Part shown: positions 10,397 through 18,223 of the stretch, piece by piece | How the letters are laid out: the number at the start of each line of letters is the position of its first letter | Numbering within the stretch: the first letter of the stretch is position 1 | Assembly: GCF_013487865.1 (NCBI RefSeq) | Contig: NZ_CP047409.1 | Location: 620,001 to 684,000, forward strand | Source: Lactobacillus johnsonii | GTDB taxonomy: Bacteria; Bacillota; Bacilli; Lactobacillales; Lactobacillaceae | Direction of reading: 5' to 3' | Length of the DNA: 64,000 bases | The notes under the pieces: generated by a model | What the model was told of the DNA's origin: nothing | The model's input: only the letters and a program-made list of their open reading frames with translations | The model's database searches: none | Program-made: the position numbers and the translations under genes

Positions 10397-11029
10397 TTTG
10401 ACTGTACTTAAAACTGAACGAATCTTCGTAGTAAGCATATCGATAGCAACATCATTTTCTCCACCTTCTGGAACAATGATATCAGCATAACGCTTAGTTG
10501 GTTCAATGAATTGATTATACATGGGCTTAACCGTTGCTAAGTATTGATTAATTACTGATTCTACAGAACGTCCACGTTCTTGTGTATCACGCTCTAATCT
10601 TCTGATAAAACGAATATCATCATCAGTATCTACAAAGACTTTAATACTCATTAAATCACGTAAATTTTCTTCGCCTAAAACTAGGATACCCTCTAAGATA
10701 ATAATATCGGCTGGTTCAGTGTGAATTGTCTTTTCACTTCTTGTATGAGCGGTAAAGTCATAAACTGGCATTTCAACTGCCTTATAGTCCATTAATTGAC
10801 GTAATTGTTCAACAAGAAGTGGCATGTCAAAGGCATCAGGATGGTCGTAGTTGATTTTTTTACGGTCTGCCATTGATAAGTTGTCGTTGTTCTTGTAGTA
10901 AGAATCTTGCGTCATAATTAAGATATGGTCGTCTTGTTGTAATTGGTCATAAATTTCATGGGCGATGGTTGTTTTACCACTACCAGAACCACCAGCAATT
11001 CCAATGATAATAGGGCGTTTACTTTGCAC
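10394..11029 (-). CDS. udk: uridine kinase
   Basis: Phosphorylates uridine and cytidine to UMP and CMP in pyrimidine salvage. It has 211 residues, normal for the family. The P-loop GGSGSGKT is at 13-20, with DSYYKNN and DHPDAFD near 42-65 as in other uridine kinases. The start is GTG 11029, with AGGAGA eight bases upstream. It is a single gene, transcribed leftward from the intergenic region it shares with the bacteriocin pheromone gene. Confidence 0.93.
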
Positions 11030-11357
11030 AATAAAATCTCCTTTTTTAAACTATTACAATAATACCTTAAAATTATGCCCTATGATAGCTTTCTGAGCAA
11101 TAATCTTGACAAATATGTTTTTTATAGTGAAATATTTTGGAACTAGTTAAAAATAAATATCTTGTTCACTATTAATATTTATAAAATTAATTCTCTTTCA
11201 AAAAAATATATATTTACTAGTAGTACGTTATAGAAAAAGAATACTAAATCAGTAATCAAATTGACCAATTTGGTATTTTTTGATTTTTTAGATAGTAAAA
11301 GATGGTAATATTTAAGACATAAAAATGTTATTAATTGTTTTAGAGGAGAGAATAACA
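11030..11357. other. 328-base divergent regulatory region
   Basis: AT-rich spacer between udk (leftward) and the pheromone gene (rightward). The udk half holds its ribosome site. The right half holds the candidate LytTR repeats (listed separately). I see no other gene or structured RNA. Confidence 0.6.
11246..11311 (+). promoter_or_regulatory. candidate LytTR-type regulated promoter of the pheromone gene (site B)
   Basis: Direct repeats AAATCAGTA at 11246 and AATTTGGTA at 11267 start 21 bases apart. The extended minus-10 TGG-TAATAT has its hexamer at 11306-11311, 39 bases after the second repeat. The lack of a good minus-35 fits an activator-dependent promoter. The adjacent LytTR regulator (14321-15118) is the natural ligand. 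Confidence 0.65.
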
Positions 11358-11513
11358 ATGAAAGAAATTAAAAAAGAAAATATTGTTAAGAAAGTTATTT
11401 TAACTGAAGAGGAAATGAGTGAAGTTACTGGTGGAGCTAGAGTAAATGCCTTTGCTGGTGGTGGAAAAATTAGTAAAAATATATTTTACTGGACGCGTAA
11501 TATTTGGAAATAA
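11358..11513 (+). CDS. double-glycine leader peptide, probable bacteriocin-inducing pheromone
   Basis: 51-residue peptide. The 26-residue leader ends ILTEEEMSEVTGG, a classic double-glycine leader cut by C39-peptidase exporters such as the one at 15131. The predicted mature peptide is 25 residues, from ARVNAFAGG to NIW K, basic and ending in aromatic residues. Its small size and position just before a sensor kinase gene point to an inducing pheromone, not a killing bacteriocin. Its promoter carries the LytTR-like repeats. ATG 11358 has AGAGGAGAG upstream. The kinase gene starts two bases after its stop. Confidence 0.85.
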   Translation: MKEIKKENIVKKVILTEEEMSEVTGGARVNAFAGGGKISKNIFYWTRNIWK

Positions 11514-11515
11514 AA

Positions 11516-12822
11516 ATGTTATTAGTATATGTTCTTTTAATGCTTGCTTCTGGAATAACTGACTTATGGATATTCTTTAGAATTTCTCAAGTTGCAGCTA
11601 GCAAAAAAATATTTTGAGTCTAGGTGCAGTGGTACTATTACTTCCCATTTTATGTGTGGGAGTTATCGAACTAGCTACTTTTTTAGAAATTTTATTTTTT
11701 GTATTTTATTTTAGAAAAAGTAAAGAAAAGGATGTGGCTATTGGATCAATTCTAATTGTGGGAGTTGTAGATTCCATCGTAGATATATTAGCCAGTATCT
11801 TAGCGGAGCTTTTGTTCATTGAGGATGCAATTTATCTCAATTTATTAGTCCAAATTATCGTTTTAATTTTTACTGTCTTTATAATTGAAATATTTCATAA
11901 ATATTTTTACTCAGATTTAATAAGTGAGAATCACAAGGTGTTTATTGGACTTCTGTTCTACTTGTATGTCTCCACCACTTTAACAATAATTTTTTACAGG
12001 CAAACTAGAAAGGTTACATCGTTAAGCATATTTTTTACAATTTTTGTATTAATACAAGTAGTCTTTGCAGTAGCCACTTACGGGGAACTAATAAATATTC
12101 AAAAACATCTTTTGAAAAAGTCCCAACAAGACAAACTAATAAAAGAGCAAAAACAACTTCAAGAATACACGCGATACTTAGAAGAGAGCGAAGATGAACT
12201 GCGTGCTTTTCGCCATGATTATCGAAATATGTTTAATTCATTAAAAATCAGTGCACAAGAGGGAGATACGAAGGAACTAATTCAAAAACTAGACGAATAT
12301 ACTAAGACTAATTTAAATGCCAAATCATTTGAAAAGTATAGAGATGTTAATCATATTAAAATAAAATCTTTGAAAAGCATTATTATTGCTAAGTTAACAG
12401 AAATGTATGGATCAAAAATCCCATATAATTTCGAATGTAGAGATGATATTACTAAAATCCCTAACAATATTAATGGATTGGATTTAGTTAGAATTATTGG
12501 CATCAGTTGTGATAATGCAATTGAAGAAAGTAAAGCATTATTGAAGCAGAATAAAAAAGCTCATATTGAAATTATGATTAGTTCAAATGAGGATGGCGAA
12601 TTTGAATATGAAATTCAGAATAAAAGAAGAGATTCAGAAATTTCACTTAAACAAATCCAGCAACGTGGTTATTCAACGAAGAAAAGTCATTCTGGCATGG
12701 GTTTAGCCAATATCAATAGTATTAAGAATAAATATGAAAATATGACAATCTCTTATGAAGTGCCGAAGGGATACTTTGATTTCTATCTCGTAATTGAACC
12801 AGAGGAGCTAATTAACAGTTAA
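11516..12822 (+). CDS. bacteriocin pheromone sensor histidine kinase (HPK10), N-terminal frameshift
   Basis: Membrane sensor for the pheromone. The frame opened by ATG 11516 encodes a first membrane helix (MLLVYVLLMLASG...) but ends at TGA 11614-11616 just after seven A residues at 11603-11609. The rest of the kinase continues in another frame to 12822. One more A would join them into a protein of about 435 residues, normal for this family. The downstream part has several membrane helices, phospho-acceptor His in FRHDYRNMFNSLK, the N-box DNAIEES and the G-box GMGLANI. A TTG restart at 11614 lacks a ribosome site. It is either inactivated or switched by slippage on the A tract. Confidence 0.8.
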
Positions 12823-12858
12823 TGAAAATATAGAAATTTATAGAAGAAATAGAAAAAC

Positions 12859-12893
12859 AGCTTATTTAGAAAGTTAAACATGGAAAATAAGCT
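12859..12893. repeat. left-end subterminal hairpin of the IS605-type element
   Basis: AGCTTATTT and AAATAAGCT form a perfect 9-bp stem with a 17-base loop. In this family such palindromes mark the ends bound by the transposase. It could also act as a weak terminator for the kinase transcript. Confidence 0.55.
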
Positions 12894-12965
12894 TTAATTT
12901 AATATTTACTTGTTTTGCTTTCCTTCCTTAGATAAACTTATGTTTGTATTTAAGGAGGTGAAGAA

Positions 12966-14123
12966 ATGATTAAAACACAAGTAGTTAAGCTAAAAGTTAA
13001 TAAAACAATGCAAAAGCATCTTGATAATTTGTGCGACTATCGTAGGTATTGCTGGAACAAAGGATTAGAAACTTGGCAATTAATGTATGAAGCTCATACA
13101 TTAAATAGAAAAGATAATCCTAGCCCTAATGAACGCAGGGTCCGTGATGAATTAGTAGCTAAGAAAGAAGATTGGCAGTATGAATTATCTGCACGTTGTC
13201 TTCAATTAGTGGTTAAAGATTTGGCTAATGCTTGGAAGAACTTCTTTGATAAGGCTCAATCTGATTGGGGTAAGCCTAGTTTCAAATCAAAGAAAGCCCC
13301 TAGACAAAGCTTTAAAACTGATCGAGCTAAGATTGTTAATGGCAAGCTTCGACTTGATAAACCTAGAAGTGTCTCAAAAGAAGATTGGTTTGATTTGTCT
13401 AGTTATGGGGCCTTAAAGATGAGTGAAGTTAAAGTAGTAAGTATCTTCAAAGAAAAAAACGCTTATTATGCGGCTCTTCCCTATGAAGAAAAGATTGAAT
13501 ATAAATCTAAAACTCATCAAAAGACAGCAGTTGATGTCAATGTCGGTCACTTTAATTACACAGATGGACAAATCAATGTTTTGCCTGTTAAACTGCAAAA
13601 ACTATATAAACGTATCAAGCATTATCAAAGGATGCTAGTCCGTAAAAGAGAAATTAATGGGAAATCAGCTATTAAATCAAATAATTACTCTGCAGTGAGA
13701 ACCAAACTGCAAAGAGATTATCGCAAGGTAGCTAATATTCAAAATGATCTTTTACAGAAGTTTACTACTAAGCTTGTAGATAATTACGACCAAATCGTAA
13801 TTGAAGACTTAGCAGTCAAAGACATGATGATGACGCACGTAGCTTCAAAAGGTATGCAGAGGTCTTTATTTAGTAAGTTTAGACAGATATTAACTTATAA
13901 GTGTGATTGGTATGGCAAAGAATTAATCTTAGCTGATAAAACATATCCATCAACACAAAGATGCGCTAAATGCGGATACGTCAAAACGGGTGATGAAAAA
14001 ATTACTTTGCAAGGCAATCAAAAGCATGGCACCAAACATAATGAGTATATCTGTTATAAGTGTGATTACAGTAATGATCGAGATGAAAATGCAGTTTTAA
14101 ACCTTTTAGCTTTAGCAAGATAA
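12966..14123 (+). CDS. tnpB: TnpB RNA-guided nuclease of the IS200/IS605 family
   Basis: 385-residue accessory protein. Known TnpB proteins are nucleases guided by an RNA made from the element's right end. The RuvC catalytic set appears complete: Asp 190 (TAVDVN), Glu 280 (IVIEDL) and Asp 371/373 (NDRDENAVLNL). The zinc-finger CAKCG...CYKC is at 333-366. Positions match those of the studied ISDra2 protein (D191, E278). The RuvC-I wording VDVNVG differs from the usual GIDLG but keeps the Asp. The start ATG 12966 has a strong AAGGAGGTG. The protein looks intact, so it is not a nuclease-dead TldR-type repressor. No tnpA is present, so movement would need one in trans. Confidence 0.92.
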   Translation: MIKTQVVKLKVNKTMQKHLDNLCDYRRYCWNKGLETWQLMYEAHTLNRKDNPSPNERRVRDELVAKKEDWQYELSARCLQLVVKDLANAWKNFFDKAQSDWGKPSFKSKKAPRQSFKTDRAKIVNGKLRLDKPRSVSKEDWFDLSSYGALKMSEVKVVSIFKEKNAYYAALPYEEKIEYKSKTHQKTAVDVNVGHFNYTDGQINVLPVKLQKLYKRIKHYQRMLVRKREINGKSAIKSNNYSAVRTKLQRDYRKVANIQNDLLQKFTTKLVDNYDQIVIEDLAVKDMMMTHVASKGMQRSLFSKFRQILTYKCDWYGKELILADKTYPSTQRCAKCGYVKTGDEKITLQGNQKHGTKHNEYICYKCDYSNDRDENAVLNLLALAR

Positions 14124-14320
14124 AAAAATAAAAACAAAGGGGCTGGCTAGGCCCTAAAGCTGTGAGAGCTAGTCAATGTGATTACTCCTAAATGGAATAT
14201 CAGAATACTAATGAAGACAACAGTAAATAAAACAAAGAAAGGGAAAATATATCTTTCTGATATGTAGAAAATACATATTCTTCTACATATTTCCATGTTT
14301 TATATAGCAGTGAAAAAACA
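14124..14320 (+). ncRNA. probable omega (guide) RNA region at the right end of the tnpB element
   Basis: The 197 bases after tnpB hold GC-rich hairpins, for example GGGCTGGCTAGGCCC near 14141-14155, and end at the host junction. In TnpB systems the guide RNA covers the end of tnpB and this region, and its guide is the host sequence just past the right end. Here that would start TGAAATATCCAGTAATTATT, the first codons of the regulator gene. Identified by position and family knowledge only. Confidence 0.45.
14260..14290. repeat. right-end subterminal hairpin of the IS605-type element
   Basis: ATATGTAGAA and TTCTACATAT form a perfect 10-bp stem with an 11-base loop, 30 bases before the regulator's start codon. 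It pairs in concept with the left-end hairpin at 12859-12893. Confidence 0.55.
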
Positions 14321-15118
14321 TTGAAATATCCAGTAATTATTTGTGATGACGATAAAACACTAGCAAATAATTTAGTAAATAATGTGAAATACGCAGCTCA
14401 GAATTTAGTTGAAGACAATACAGCTTATGAAAATGTGGAGATTAGTGTAGAGCAAGTTGCCACTACCTTTGAGCAAGTCGTAAGTTATGTAGTGGCTAAG
14501 GATATTCAAAATGCAATTTACTTCTTAGATATTGAATTAAGTCAAAATTCTGAAGCTAAGAATGGAGTAGATTTAGCAGAATTCATCAAAAAACAAGATC
14601 CGAATGCTCAGATTATTTTTGTTACTGCTTATGATAAGTACGCCCCCTTAACTTATCGAAGACGAATTGGTGCAATTGACTATATTAATAAAGCACTAGA
14701 CCAAAATGATATGATGAAGCGTCTAGAAGAAACAATTACTGGGGCGATTCAAAGTATTAACAATCTTACAAAGTCTGGAAGAAAAGAGCTTGTTTATAAA
14801 GTAGGCCGCAGGATAAATAAGGTAGAAGATACTAATATCTATTATCTTGAAAATAGCCCTACACAGCATAAAGTCACTCTAATAACTGAAACTGGTTCAG
14901 CTGAATTTAGAAGCAATATTTCAAAAATTAGTGATGAAAATGACTTTCTTGTTAAAATATCTCAATCTTGCGTAGTTAATCCAAATAATATTGATAGCAT
15001 TGATTTTTCGAAAAAGACCATAACATTTCCTAATGGGGATGAAGTAATATTTGCTCGTAGCTTCAAAAAACATGTCAAGAATTTACTAAATAAATATCCG
15101 GAAATTAACGTTAAATAA
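14321..15118 (+). CDS. LytTR-family response regulator of the bacteriocin locus
   Basis: Transcription activator of 265 residues. The receiver domain has acidic DDD at 9-11, phospho-acceptor Asp 70 (YFLDIEL) and the VTAYDKYA segment at 101-108. The C-terminal LytTR DNA-binding domain covers about 150-260. It should bind 9-bp repeats 21 bp apart, as seen at four promoters in this window. The start codon is TTG 14321 with no clear ribosome site: the upstream transposon has replaced the first base of the original ATG and removed coupling to the kinase gene. Expression may be low. The exporter genes follow in the same direction. Confidence 0.9.
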   Translation: MKYPVIICDDDKTLANNLVNNVKYAAQNLVEDNTAYENVEISVEQVATTFEQVVSYVVAKDIQNAIYFLDIELSQNSEAKNGVDLAEFIKKQDPNAQIIFVTAYDKYAPLTYRRRIGAIDYINKALDQNDMMKRLEETITGAIQSINNLTKSGRKELVYKVGRRINKVEDTNIYYLENSPTQHKVTLITETGSAEFRSNISKISDENDFLVKISQSCVVNPNNIDSIDFSKKTITFPNGDEVIFARSFKKHVKNLLNKYPEINVK

Positions 15119-15130
15119 AAGGTAAGACTT

Positions 15131-17290
15131 ATGTTATTCAAATATAAATCTGTTTATGTACCTCAAGTAGATGAGATGGATTGCGGAGTTGCTTGTCTAG
15201 CAATGATCTTAAAGCAGTATCAATCTCGTGTGTCTTTAGCACATTTGCGTCACGAAGCTCGCACAAATCTTGAAGGCACAACTACGCTGGGACTAGTTAA
15301 AACAGCACAGAAATTTAATTTTAAAACTGAAGCCGTAAAAGCTGATATGTCTCTTTTTAATGAGGATACTATTCAATACCCTTTTATCGTGCATGTTCTT
15401 AAGCAAGGAGAATTACTTCATTATTACGTAGTTCTTAAAAATACTAAGAATTACTTAGTAATTGCCGATCCTGATCCATCAGTTGGCATAATAAAGATGC
15501 CTAAAGATAAATTTGCTCAAGAATGGACTGGTATTGCGCTTTTTATGGTTCCGAATGAAGATTTTGAACCAATTAAAGAAAAGAAAAATAACCTATGGTC
15601 TCTCTTTCCATATATGTTTAAGCAAAAGCGGCTGATGATTAATATCATTTTAGCCGCTTTATTAATGACAATAATTAGTATTTGTAGTTCATACTTTGTG
15701 CAAGGAATAATCGATACTTATATTCCCGATGGAACTTATCAGACTCTTTCAATTTTAGCTGTTGGACTATTAATTGCTTATATTTTTAATTCAATCTTTT
15801 CTTATGGACAGAATTTTTTATTAAATGTTCTAGGTCAAAGATTAAGTATTGATTTAAACCTCCAATATATAAGGCATATTTTTGAATTGCCAATGGAATT
15901 CTTTGTGACTAGAAGAACTGGTGAAATAACCTCACGTTTCTCTGATGCAAGTAGAATTATTGATGCTCTAGCAAGTACTGTTATTTCACTTTTCTTAGAC
16001 TTAGCGATTGTAATTGTAATGGGACTAGTGTTAGCTGCTCAAAATATGACCTTATTTGGAATCACATTATTAGCTTTACCAGTATATGCTGTAGTAATTC
16101 TGGGATTTACTAAGAAATTTGAAAAGTTAAATGATGAACAAATGGAGAGCAATGCAGTACTAAGTTCTTCAGTCATCGAAGATATTCAAGGTATTGAAAC
16201 TATCAAAGCTCTCAATAGTGAAGATACAAGATATCGTAGAATCGATAGCCAATTTGTAAATTATTTAAAGAAGTCATTTAAATATAGTAAGGCTGAGAGT
16301 TTGCAGACGGCGTTAAAGACATTTATTCAACTATCTCTTAATGTAATTATTTTATGGGTTGGCGCACGAGTAGTGATGCAAGGACAGATGAGTATCGGTC
16401 AATTAATGACTTTTAATGCGTTACTATCTTATTTCATTGACCCACTTCAAAATATTATTAACTTACAACCTCGTCTTCAATCAGCTAGTGTTGCACAAAA
16501 TAGATTGAACGAGGTTTATCAGGTGCAAAGTGAATTTAATGCAGATACTTCTATCCAGAACTCAGCTGCTTTAGAAGGAATGATTGAATACAAGCATGTT
16601 GATTATCGATATGGTTATGGGACGGATGTTTTAAAAAACATTAATCTAAAAATTAAGCCAGATGAAAAATTAGCAATTGTTGGCATGAGTGGATCAGGAA
16701 AATCGACAATGGTTAAGTTACTCGTTGATTTCTTTTCACCAAGTAAGGGAGAAGTAACTTTAAATGGTCATGCAACTAGTGAAGTTAATAAACATACCTT
16801 ACGCTCATATGTTAACTATGTTCCTCAAACGCCATATATCTTTTCTGGAACAGTTAAGAAGAATTTATTACTCGGCTGCAGACCGGATATTAGCGAAGAA
16901 GATGTAATTAAAGCCTGTCAGATTGCTGGAATTGATCAGGAGATAGCTAGTTTGCCACTACAATTCGAGACAAAGTTAGATGAGAATGCCAAGATTTTAT
17001 CCGGTGGACAAAAGCAGAGATTAACTATTGCTAGAGCATTACTCTCGCCAGCAAAAGTTTTTATCTTTGATGAAGTAACAAGTGGTTTAGATACAATTAC
17101 AGAAAAAAGAGTAGTTGACAATCTTATGAAACTAAAAGACAAGACAATCATTTTTATTGCACACCGTCTAGCCATTGCAGAACGTGCAGATAAGGTGGTT
17201 GTAATTGACCAGGGGCAGATTGTTGAAGAAGGAAGTCATGAAGAGCTTATGGAGCAACATGGTTTTTATTATGACTTAGTAAAGGGATAG
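15131..17290 (+). CDS. bacteriocin/pheromone ABC exporter with C39 peptidase
   Basis: Inner-membrane exporter of 719 residues that cuts double-glycine leaders and secretes the peptide. The N-terminal C39 protease has Cys 18 (EMDCGVACLAM), His 97 (LLHYYV) and Asp 113 (ADPDP). A six-helix membrane domain spans about 165-450. The ATPase has Walker A GMSGSGKST near 518-526, the signature LSGGQKQR and Walker B VFIFDEVTSGLD. All catalytic motifs are intact. ATG 15131 follows a modest AAAGG. Its substrate here should be the pheromone at 11358. It is in an operon with the regulator upstream and the accessory gene downstream. Confidence 0.93.
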   Translation: MLFKYKSVYVPQVDEMDCGVACLAMILKQYQSRVSLAHLRHEARTNLEGTTTLGLVKTAQKFNFKTEAVKADMSLFNEDTIQYPFIVHVLKQGELLHYYVVLKNTKNYLVIADPDPSVGIIKMPKDKFAQEWTGIALFMVPNEDFEPIKEKKNNLWSLFPYMFKQKRLMINIILAALLMTIISICSSYFVQGIIDTYIPDGTYQTLSILAVGLLIAYIFNSIFSYGQNFLLNVLGQRLSIDLNLQYIRHIFELPMEFFVTRRTGEITSRFSDASRIIDALASTVISLFLDLAIVIVMGLVLAAQNMTLFGITLLALPVYAVVILGFTKKFEKLNDEQMESNAVLSSSVIEDIQGIETIKALNSEDTRYRRIDSQFVNYLKKSFKYSKAESLQTALKTFIQLSLNVIILWVGARVVMQGQMSIGQLMTFNALLSYFIDPLQNIINLQPRLQSASVAQNRLNEVYQVQSEFNADTSIQNSAALEGMIEYKHVDYRYGYGTDVLKNINLKIKPDEKLAIVGMSGSGKSTMVKLLVDFFSPSKGEVTLNGHATSEVNKHTLRSYVNYVPQTPYIFSGTVKKNLLLGCRPDISEEDVIKACQIAGIDQEIASLPLQFETKLDENAKILSGGQKQRLTIARALLSPAKVFIFDEVTSGLDTITEKRVVDNLMKLKDKTIIFIAHRLAIAERADKVVVIDQGQIVEEGSHEELMEQHGFYYDLVKG

Positions 17291-17300
17291 GTGAAGATAG

Positions 17301-17894
17301 ATGGACGTAAAAGACTATGAAAGCACAGAATTCTATTCCTATAAATTTAAAAATTTTTCGACAATGATTATTATTCCAGCTGCTATTCTTGTCTTCCTTG
17401 TATTTATTGGTTCTTTTTTTGCAATTAGACAGAGTACAGTTTCTTCAGTCGGAGTTATTGAGCCAGTGACTGTGATTAAACAAAAAACTACTAATTATGA
17501 TGAGGGGCAAATTGTAACAAAACATGGTCAAAAATGGGTAGCTCATATTGATCAAGATGATGCAGTAAATTTGATGCCCATGATAGCAGCCAAGAAACAG
17601 GTGAAGATAATCACTTACGTACCAAGTAATAAGGTTTCGGCTATTAAAAAGGGACAGACGATAAACTTTTCTGTCCCAACAGGAGATGGCTTGACCAGTA
17701 GATTAATTGGTAAAGTGAGAGAAATTGGCGTTTATCCAGTAAATATAAATAAGCAGAGTGGCTATGAGATCATCTCGACTGCGAAAATTAATGATGAAAA
17801 TGTTAAGTATGGGATGCAGGGAAATGCGACAATTCTCACGGGTAGTAGCACTTATTTTGAATACTTTTTAGATAAGATCTTGAATAAGAAATAA
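17301..17894 (+). CDS. bacteriocin export accessory protein
   Basis: 197-residue bitopic membrane protein: short cytoplasmic N-terminus, one hydrophobic helix at about 22-45, then an extracytoplasmic part with beta-rich segments. It occupies the place of the HlyD-like accessory factor in class II bacteriocin loci, which is usually about 450 residues and has a coiled-coil hairpin. Here only the parts flanking the hairpin seem present. It follows the exporter by 10 bases with GGTGAAG at a suitable distance. The short form may be normal for this species group; I cannot exclude a deletion. Confidence 0.75.
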
Positions 17895-17938
17895 GTTTGA
17901 TAAAATGATGTTAAATCATATTAGGTGAGGACAGAAAT

Positions 17939-18223
17939 ATGAATGAAAATAAGCTAAAAATGATGTTGACTAAAATCAAAGCAAATGTTGATATTGCAAC
18001 TGATCCAGAAGCACAAAAACTAATTGAATCAGCACTTGATGCAGTAGATAGAAAAATTGATTTACAAAAAGTTATGCATGATCTAAAGCAAGATATTAAT
18101 ATGTATTCTGTGGCGCATGGATTTAAGCTACCAGAGACTTTGACAAAGTTACAGCTTTTATTAGATAAAAATCCTGATAAATGGGTTGGTGCAGGTGCTG
18201 GTGGAGTTTGGCCAGTAATCTAG
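17939..18223 (+). CDS. bacteriocin immunity-like protein (enterocin A immunity type)
   Basis: 94 residues, mostly helical, without membrane helices. Size and pattern fit the four-helix-bundle immunity proteins of pediocin-like bacteriocins. The C-terminus is unusual: DKWVGAGAGGVWPVI, rich in Gly and Trp. The C-terminus decides specificity in this family. The protein at 19464-19778 is a paralog with a similar Trp/Gly-rich tail. RBS AGGTGAGG is upstream. No bacteriocin gene accompanies it. The family call is by eye and moderate. Confidence 0.65.
   Translation: MNENKLKMMLTKIKANVDIATDPEAQKLIESALDAVDRKIDLQKVMHDLKQDINMYSVAHGFKLPETLTKLQLLLDKNPDKWVGAGAGGVWPVI

What the first reader, a model, noticed from the sequence alone, without database searches (positions are those of the whole stretch)
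12823..14321. tnpB element inserted exactly at the kinase/regulator junction and rebuilt the regulator's start codon
Joining the flanks (CAGTTAA and TGAAATATCC) restores an overlap of the kinase stop with ATG of the regulator. The insertion turned ATG into TTG using a base of the element, and removed translational coupling and the ribosome site. Subterminal perfect hairpins at 36 and 30 bp from the tips agree with the proposed ends.
Basis: partly seen in the sequence, partly recalled or inferred. Interest (0 to 1): 0.72.

Follow-up and report, generated by a model that had tools for sequence, protein, structure and literature searches.

The report
Jumping element splitting ribosome-binding site from gene
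A small mobile DNA element that carries an RNA-guided DNA cutter sits between a bacterial regulator gene's ribosome-binding site and its start codon, and its relatives are repeatedly found at the same kind of place, apparently because their target motif is itself the ribosome-binding sequence.

Summary
Empty sites in two relatives, and other copies of the element, place it at 12808-14310 (1503 bp, +/-2 bp), not 12823-14321. The pre-insertion site reads CCAGAGGAG|TGAAAAA(A)(C/T)ATTG. The kinase originally stopped at TGA directly after GAGGAG; the element now adds four codons (LINS) and a stop. The TTG start is ancestral (also in empty-site relatives G006 and G016). The insertion did separate the regulator's Shine-Dalgarno (SD) sequence GAGGAG from its start codon.

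The element is a tnpA-less member of the IS607 group with an apparently intact TnpB nuclease and a 3' guide-RNA scaffold (Rfam RF03014). The broader result is that its target, GGAG/AGGAG, equals the SD core and matches the published AGGAG TAM of other IS607 TnpBs. All four copies in this genome lie between an SD and a start codon. Across 98 non-redundant insertions in Lactobacillaceae, 65 have an ATG opening an ORF 3-15 nt past the right end, versus 14% of AGGAG sites (39% of non-coding ones) in the host genome. I found no paper that notes this.

The parts
12808..14310 (+). tnpA-less IS607-type tnpB element, 1503 bp (boundaries can slide 2 bp left, because AG is shared by the target GGAG and the right end GCAG)
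   Evidence: Empty sites in G016 (L006) and G006 (L015); shared termini of other copies
12803..12807 (+). Target motif AGGAG (part of GAGGAG 12802-12807): original Shine-Dalgarno sequence of the regulator, equal to the AGGAG TAM reported for other IS607 TnpBs
   Evidence: Sequence; empty sites; 18 of 18 unanchored left ends preceded by GGAG, 14 of them AGGAG; PMC11061315
12808..12822 (+). Element-derived end of the kinase ORF: codons CTA ATT AAC AGT TAA add LINS and a new stop; the G016 relative stops at TGA directly after GAG GAG
   Evidence: ORF list; G016 kinase ends EPEE*
12859..12893 (+). Left subterminal hairpin (9-bp perfect stem, 17-nt loop)
   Evidence: Sequence; same segment seen in the other genome copies
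12966..14123 (+). tnpB, 385 aa; predicted RuvC residues D190, E280, D371 and zinc-finger cysteines present
   Evidence: Pfam PF01385 and PF07282; NF040570 guided_TnpB 235.8 bits, cut-off 100; alignment to a TnpB-like chain; residue numbers
14160..14217 (+). Guide-RNA scaffold core, Rfam RF03014 Transposase-1 RNA
   Evidence: 55.9 bits, gathering 42.8; covarying helices in 24 copies
14261..14289 (+). Right subterminal hairpin, between the RF03014 core and the right tip
   Evidence: Sequence; predicted in part in the single-strand fold; not part of the consensus structure
14307..14310 (+). Right end GCAG, which replaces GGAG next to the guide region (differs from the TAM at one base)
   Evidence: Conserved right ends
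14311..14330 (+). Predicted 20-nt guide: the first bases after the element, covering the regulator's start codon
   Evidence: Inference from the layout and from the about-20-nt optimal guide of PMC11061315
14321..15118 (+). Response regulator (LytTR, AgrA-like), ancestral TTG start, now without an upstream SD
   Evidence: same TTG in G006, G016, G088, G089; duplex with anti-SD -8.5 before, -0.5 kcal/mol after
11614..12822 (+). AgrC-like sensor kinase
   Evidence: PF14501; NF046015 99.9 bits, below its cut-off of 500

Best explanation
The window holds a non-autonomous IS607-group element: tnpB plus a guide-RNA scaffold, without tnpA. A serine transposase supplied in trans inserted it by exchange at the AG of a GGAG site. 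That site was the Shine-Dalgarno sequence of the bacteriocin-locus response regulator, overlapping the last two codons of the kinase. The insertion left GAGGAG upstream, gave the kinase four extra codons and a new stop, and put the element's GCAG where GGAG had been, 10 nt before the ancestral TTG start. TnpB would use the element's 3' RNA plus about 20 nt of the start-codon region as guide, with (A)GGAG as TAM. It would thus cut empty alleles (SD plus start region), while the element-bearing copy (GCAG) is spared. Because TAM and insertion target coincide with the SD, this element family lands again and again between SD and start codon. Shown: ends, empty sites, ancestral TTG, IS607 relatives, SD-site statistics, intact predicted catalytic residues. 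Inferred: transposition in trans, RNA-guided retention, lowered regulator translation.
For: Ends and empty sites. Unanchored left-end motif found in 18 of 98 insertions, preceded by GGAG in 18 of 18. IS607 transposase NF033518 (219 bits, cut-off 110) directly upstream of an 88% identical tnpB with the same ends in G062. TnpB family and conserved D190/E280/D371. RF03014 and covariation in 15 of 26 predicted pairs. Published AGGAG TAM in 18 of 22 IS607-TnpB strains. SD-to-start position: 4 of 4 copies in G000; 65 of 98 with ATG and 74 of 98 with any start, against 64 of 458 and 91 of 458 AGGAG sites in 400 kb of G000.
Against: G000 has no recognisable IS607 transposase, so movement in trans is unproven there. 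RF03014 is not the RAGATH-18 family of the published TnpBs, so the AGGAG TAM is transferred by analogy plus flank evidence. 24 of 98 insertions are not upstream of an ORF by my rule. The excess over non-coding AGGAG sites is modest within the closest subset (15 of 25 against 39%, p 0.03), so loss of gene-disrupting insertions explains part of the pattern. No expression data.
Confidence: 0.85

Rival explanations
1. One reading: element 12823-14321 inserted at a kinase-stop/ATG overlap, turning ATG into TTG with an element base.
For: G031, at 82% regulator protein identity, does use ATG.
Confidence: 0.02
2. The SD bias is only survivorship: the transposase accepts GGAG-like sites anywhere, insertions inside genes are lost, and SDs are merely the commonest G-rich intergenic sites in a low-GC genome.
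For: IS607 itself targets (G)GG with little further specificity (PMC6188088, passages). Non-coding AGGAG sites are already upstream of an ATG ORF in 46 of 117 cases.
Against: GGAG is present at 18 of 18 resolved left ends, so the motif is more than GG. 65 of 98 exceeds 39% (p 6e-8), though only p 0.03 in the closest subset.
Confidence: 0.4
3. The element has been kept at the regulator as a switch: reduced regulator translation, or RNA-guided TnpB acting on the locus, tunes bacteriocin induction.
For: The insertion is shared by G000, G088 and G089; regulator dN/dS is about 0.1 between G000 and G089.
Against: The same element sits in front of unrelated genes, including metG-like and ecfT-like ones. 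TnpB keeps its predicted catalytic residues, unlike TldR repressors. Purifying selection on the regulator needs no switch.
Confidence: 0.08
4. IS200/IS605-type peel-and-paste element, inserted 3' of a short target with subterminal hairpins.
For: Insertion 3' of a short motif, subterminal hairpins, and a better NCBIfam score for IS200_TnpB (188.7) than IS607_TnpB (99.4), both far below their cut-offs.
Against: A relative with the same ends carries a serine-recombinase IS607 transposase, and AG is shared by target and right end.
Confidence: 0.04

Closest known systems
IS607-family TnpBs with RAGATH-18-derived reRNA (ISFba1; Cell Res 2024, PMC11061315)
   Same: Compact IS607 TnpB (about 385 aa), guide RNA encoded downstream of and separate from tnpB, TAM AGGAG adjacent to the left end
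   Different: This element's scaffold matches Rfam RF03014, not RAGATH-18; it lacks tnpA. The paper's main text does not mention Shine, ribosome, RBS or start codon (term searches)
IS607 of Helicobacter pylori and its TnpA (PMC6188088)
   Same: Serine transposase in the related copies, dinucleotide exchange, no target duplication
   Different: IS607 targets (G)GG with little more (passages); here GGAG/AGGAG with AG shared. The window copy has no tnpA
ISXfa1-type IS607 (NAR 2023, PMC10711439)
   Same: TAM and crossover dinucleotide are linked in these elements
   Different: The motif depleted there is GGG (passages)
TldR, nuclease-dead TnpB repressors (PMC13418256, search listing only; nuclease-dead nature recalled)
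   Same: Would link a TnpB-like protein to gene regulation
   Different: Predicted catalytic residues D190/E280/D371 are intact here

Membership tests
IS607 family | Serine-recombinase TnpA (MerR-HTH plus resolvase domain) | tested here: not met
   Absent from the window element and not found in G000 (the control rings in 7 of 14 genomes). Present in a relative with the same ends: L217 ORF, NF033518 219 bits, PF00239 and MerR. So: a tnpA-less derivative, not a full IS607 element
IS607 family | Exchange at a shared dinucleotide, no target-site duplication | tested here: met
   AG shared by target GGAG and right end GCAG; empty sites rejoin without duplication
IS607 TnpB / AGGAG-TAM group | AGGAG motif next to the left end | tested here: met
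   14 AGGAG, 2 TGGAG, 2 GGGAG among 18 resolved left ends
IS607 TnpB / AGGAG-TAM group | RAGATH-18-type reRNA | tested here: inconclusive
   Rfam scan of 11000-16000 at E<=1 gives RF03014 Transposase-1 as the only match inside the element; whether Rfam holds RAGATH-18 was not checked
RNA-guided nuclease TnpB | RuvC D/E/D residues and zinc finger | tested here: met
   D190, E280, D371, CAKC, CYKC by alignment and sequence; activity not tested
TldR repressor | Loss of RuvC catalytic residues (recalled) | tested here: not met
   Residues intact
IS200/IS605 | Y1 (HUH) TnpA | tested here: not met
   No second transposase ORF in the window element; the related copy has a serine transposase. G000 was not searched for a Y1 transposase
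IStron | Group I intron within the element (recalled) | tested here: not met
   No intron family in the Rfam scan at E<=1

The most novel reading that the evidence does not exclude
A family of RNA-guided elements has made the ribosome-binding site its address. One motif, (A)GGAG, serves as integration target, as nuclease TAM and as Shine-Dalgarno sequence. The element therefore settles genome-wide between SD and start codon, guides its nuclease against SD-plus-start alleles, swaps the SD for GCAG, and yet leaves even core genes such as metG in place as intact ORFs. That implies translation that tolerates or bypasses loss of the SD. In the window the same insertion sits in two diverged bacteriocin haplotypes with an element 8-9 times less diverged than its flanks, which would fit recent RNA-guided homing.
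Probability: 0.5. Interest if true: 0.7.

Novelty: new variant of a known kind. Interest (0 to 1): 0.52.

Why it matters
If the TAM of these TnpBs is the ribosome-binding sequence, insertion becomes a systematic way to uncouple genes in operons and lower their translation, and every copy is a natural experiment on how a gene copes without its SD. It also makes a testable prediction for all AGGAG-TAM TnpBs. For the window itself, it corrects the reading of the regulator: nothing rebuilt its start codon.

Tried and rejected
Homing footprint: identity between G000 and the carriers G088/G089 peaks around the element, but the empty-site relative G006 shows the same rise on the left (98% at 12250-12750, 75-86% at 11250-11999), so the peak on that side reflects exchange of the kinase's sensor part. 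I do not claim a conversion tract. The contrast that remains is 4 of 1503 differences in the element (G088) against 19 of 800 in the two 400-bp flanks (G089), Fisher p 3e-6; tnpB/reRNA constraint or recombination could explain it.

Generality beyond Lactobacillaceae: TnpB at E<=1e-60 in 398 genomes of the phylum and RF03014 in 299 genomes rang only in G000, so this could not be tested outside the family, apart from a few loci labelled as other taxa. Phage records: no match.

Outward promoter or terminator in the element: three weak promoter-like hits, fewer than in shuffles, none near the right end, and no terminator-like site. IStron reading: no intron match. First versions of the insertion count had right-end pattern faults: the filter dropped many valid copies, and mis-set L004. 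One search is the corrected count and differs by one insertion (74 and 65 instead of 73 and 64). The first left-end search was anchored on GGAG and is circular; it is replaced. The SD-energy comparison over 74 insertions assumes an ideal AGGAG before insertion, so 'weaker in 74 of 74' is built in and is not used as evidence; the window value uses the real joined flanks.

Full report
WHAT IS THERE. The window belongs to a 1.996-Mb single-contig genome, G000. It is about 97% identical to G012 over a 12-kb sample; G012 carries the same insertion-site sequence as the Lactobacillus johnsonii ATCC 33200 record (loci L039 and L068), so it is inferred to be that species. The region is a bacteriocin locus: an AgrC-like kinase, an AgrA/LytTR regulator, a peptide-export ABC transporter and an accessory protein. 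Between kinase and regulator lies a 385-aa TnpB ORF. Three further copies at 84-86% DNA identity occur in the genome.

ENDS. In an unanchored search the left-end motif was found in 18 of 98 non-redundant insertions, and GGAG preceded it in 18 of 18 (AGGAG 14, TGGAG 2, GGGAG 2). A pairwise check put GGAG at the boundary of similarity in 40 of 82 copies; in the other 42 the modal boundary fell elsewhere, often inside tnpA or tnpB. Empty sites exist in G016 (regulator protein 92% identical) and G006 (97% over its 109 residues at a contig edge; core DNA 98%): CCAGAGGAGTGAAAAAATATTGAAATATCC and CCAGAGGAGTGAAAAACATTGAAATATCC. Blast alignments end at window 12807 and resume at 14306, the last bases being the shared AG. 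The element is 12808-14310, 1503 bp.

WHAT THE INSERTION CHANGED. In G016 the kinase ends ..VIEPEE* with TGA directly after GAGGAG; in the window it ends ..VIEPEELINS*, the last four codons and stop coming from the element. The regulator's TTG is present with and without the element (G006, G016; G088, G089) and is therefore ancestral; the more distant G031 has ATG. GAGGAG was the regulator's Shine-Dalgarno sequence, 10 nt before TTG; it is now 1.5 kb away, and the sequence in its place is GCAG. Estimated pairing with the 16S tail falls from -8.5 to -0.5 kcal/mol. Between the carriers G000 and G089 the regulator has dS 0.134 and dN 0.013, so it is probably still used.

WHAT THE ELEMENT IS. TnpB matches guided_TnpB above cut-off (235.8 bits, 100), and its RuvC residues align (D190, E280, D371). 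Downstream, 14160-14217 matches Rfam RF03014 above gathering. In 24 copies (chosen from the 98) the predicted consensus structure of the 3' region has 26 pairs, 15 with changes on both sides, including a helix that pairs ATAAAA-type sequence with TTTTAT close to the right end. The window RNA folds with z -3.24. In G062 an 88% identical tnpB with the same ends has an IS607 transposase directly upstream (NF033518, 219 bits; PDB relatives include IS607-family catalytic domains). G000 has no such transposase (in one search the control search rang in 7 of 14 genomes). So the element is a tnpA-less member of the IS607 group.

THE TARGET IS THE SHINE-DALGARNO SEQUENCE. PMC11061315 (passages and the discussion section read) reports that IS607 TnpBs cut next to AGGAG (18 of 22 strains) or GAGGG (4 of 22). 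Its main text has no hit for Shine, ribosome, RBS or start codon. Of 169 loci holding a TnpB relative, 145 gave a right end and 24 were excluded (below 45% identity, no right-end motif, incomplete, or duplicate); 7 had too short a flank; collapsing near-identical flanks left 98 insertions (one right end corrected). Of these 98, 65 have an ATG, and 74 any of ATG/GTG/TTG, 3-15 nt after the junction opening at least 40 codons. Background in 400 kb of G000: AGGAG sites 64 of 458 (ATG) and 91 of 458 (any); non-coding AGGAG sites 46 of 117 and 58 of 117; GGAG sites 153 of 1414 and 236 of 1414. Moving the test 60-240 nt along the same flanks gives 5-10 ATG hits of 97-98. Binomial p is 3e-32 against all AGGAG sites and 6e-8 against non-coding ones (ATG). 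For the 25 closest insertions (TnpB 76% identity or more) it is 15 of 25, p 1e-7 and p 0.03 respectively. These p-values use one genome as background and treat insertions as independent. In G000 all four copies fit: the regulator (TTG), an ECF-transporter T-component-like gene, an amino-acid-type ABC permease, and a C69 dipeptidase. At two of these sites relatives show the empty form: ACAGGAGGTGAAGGAAGTG (G006, G016, G011) and GGGAGGAAATGG or similar (G016, G011, G006). One copy in the MAG G088 lies directly before a 659-position metG reading frame. Whatever start signal such genes use, the insertion is tolerated.

HOW IT PROBABLY WORKS. A serine transposase acting in trans exchanges strands at the AG of GGAG. 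The guide RNA then carries the start-codon region of the invaded gene, and TnpB can cut alleles that still have GGAG next to that region, while the element's own GCAG differs from the TAM. PMC11061315 reports loss of cutting on any single TAM change for ISFba1; that this holds here is inference. The effect on the invaded gene, weaker initiation, is inferred from sequence only.

LITERATURE CHECK. Searches for IS607 + Shine-Dalgarno, TnpB + AGGAG, TnpB + ribosome binding site + TAM, TnpB + Shine-Dalgarno, insertion sequence + Shine-Dalgarno + target specificity + transposase, IS607 + Lactobacillus johnsonii and TnpB + ribosome binding site + insertion sequence + Lactobacillus returned, from their listings, no paper on SD-targeted insertion. 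Only open-licence PMC papers were searched.

VERDICT. The better story is the family's repeated landing on Shine-Dalgarno sequences, which follows from a known TAM but seems not to have been pointed out.

Noticed in passing
L136:606-2100 (G089): In G089 the shared element carries a further insertion of about 1.5 kb in its left non-coding part, with two ORFs resembling an IS3-type transposase pair (name recalled, not tested).
   Followed up: partly
L304:1501-1777 (Lactobacillus taiwanensis plasmid NZ_CP059277.1): A miniature, tnpB-less remnant with the same left end after AGGAG and a degenerate right end, again just before an ATG; a possible MITE.
   Followed up: partly
window 11250-12000 and 15000-18000: Against G089, whose core is about 99% identical, the kinase's sensor half and the ABC transporter fall to about 74-92% identity: the bacteriocin locus looks like a mosaic of exchanged haplotypes.
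   Followed up: partly
window 11325-11513: Small ORF with a weak bacteriocin-like-peptide match (20.1 bits, cut-off 40) upstream of the kinase; candidate inducing peptide.
   Followed up: no
L093:739 on (G088 contig 14): An element copy ends 10 nt before the ATG of an intact methionine--tRNA ligase ORF, leaving no evident SD; it is a MAG, so strain mixture cannot be excluded.
   Followed up: partly
G000:C1:1699215-1700686: Of the four copies in the genome, only this one did not ring for RF03014 in a family search that used strict filters.
   Followed up: no
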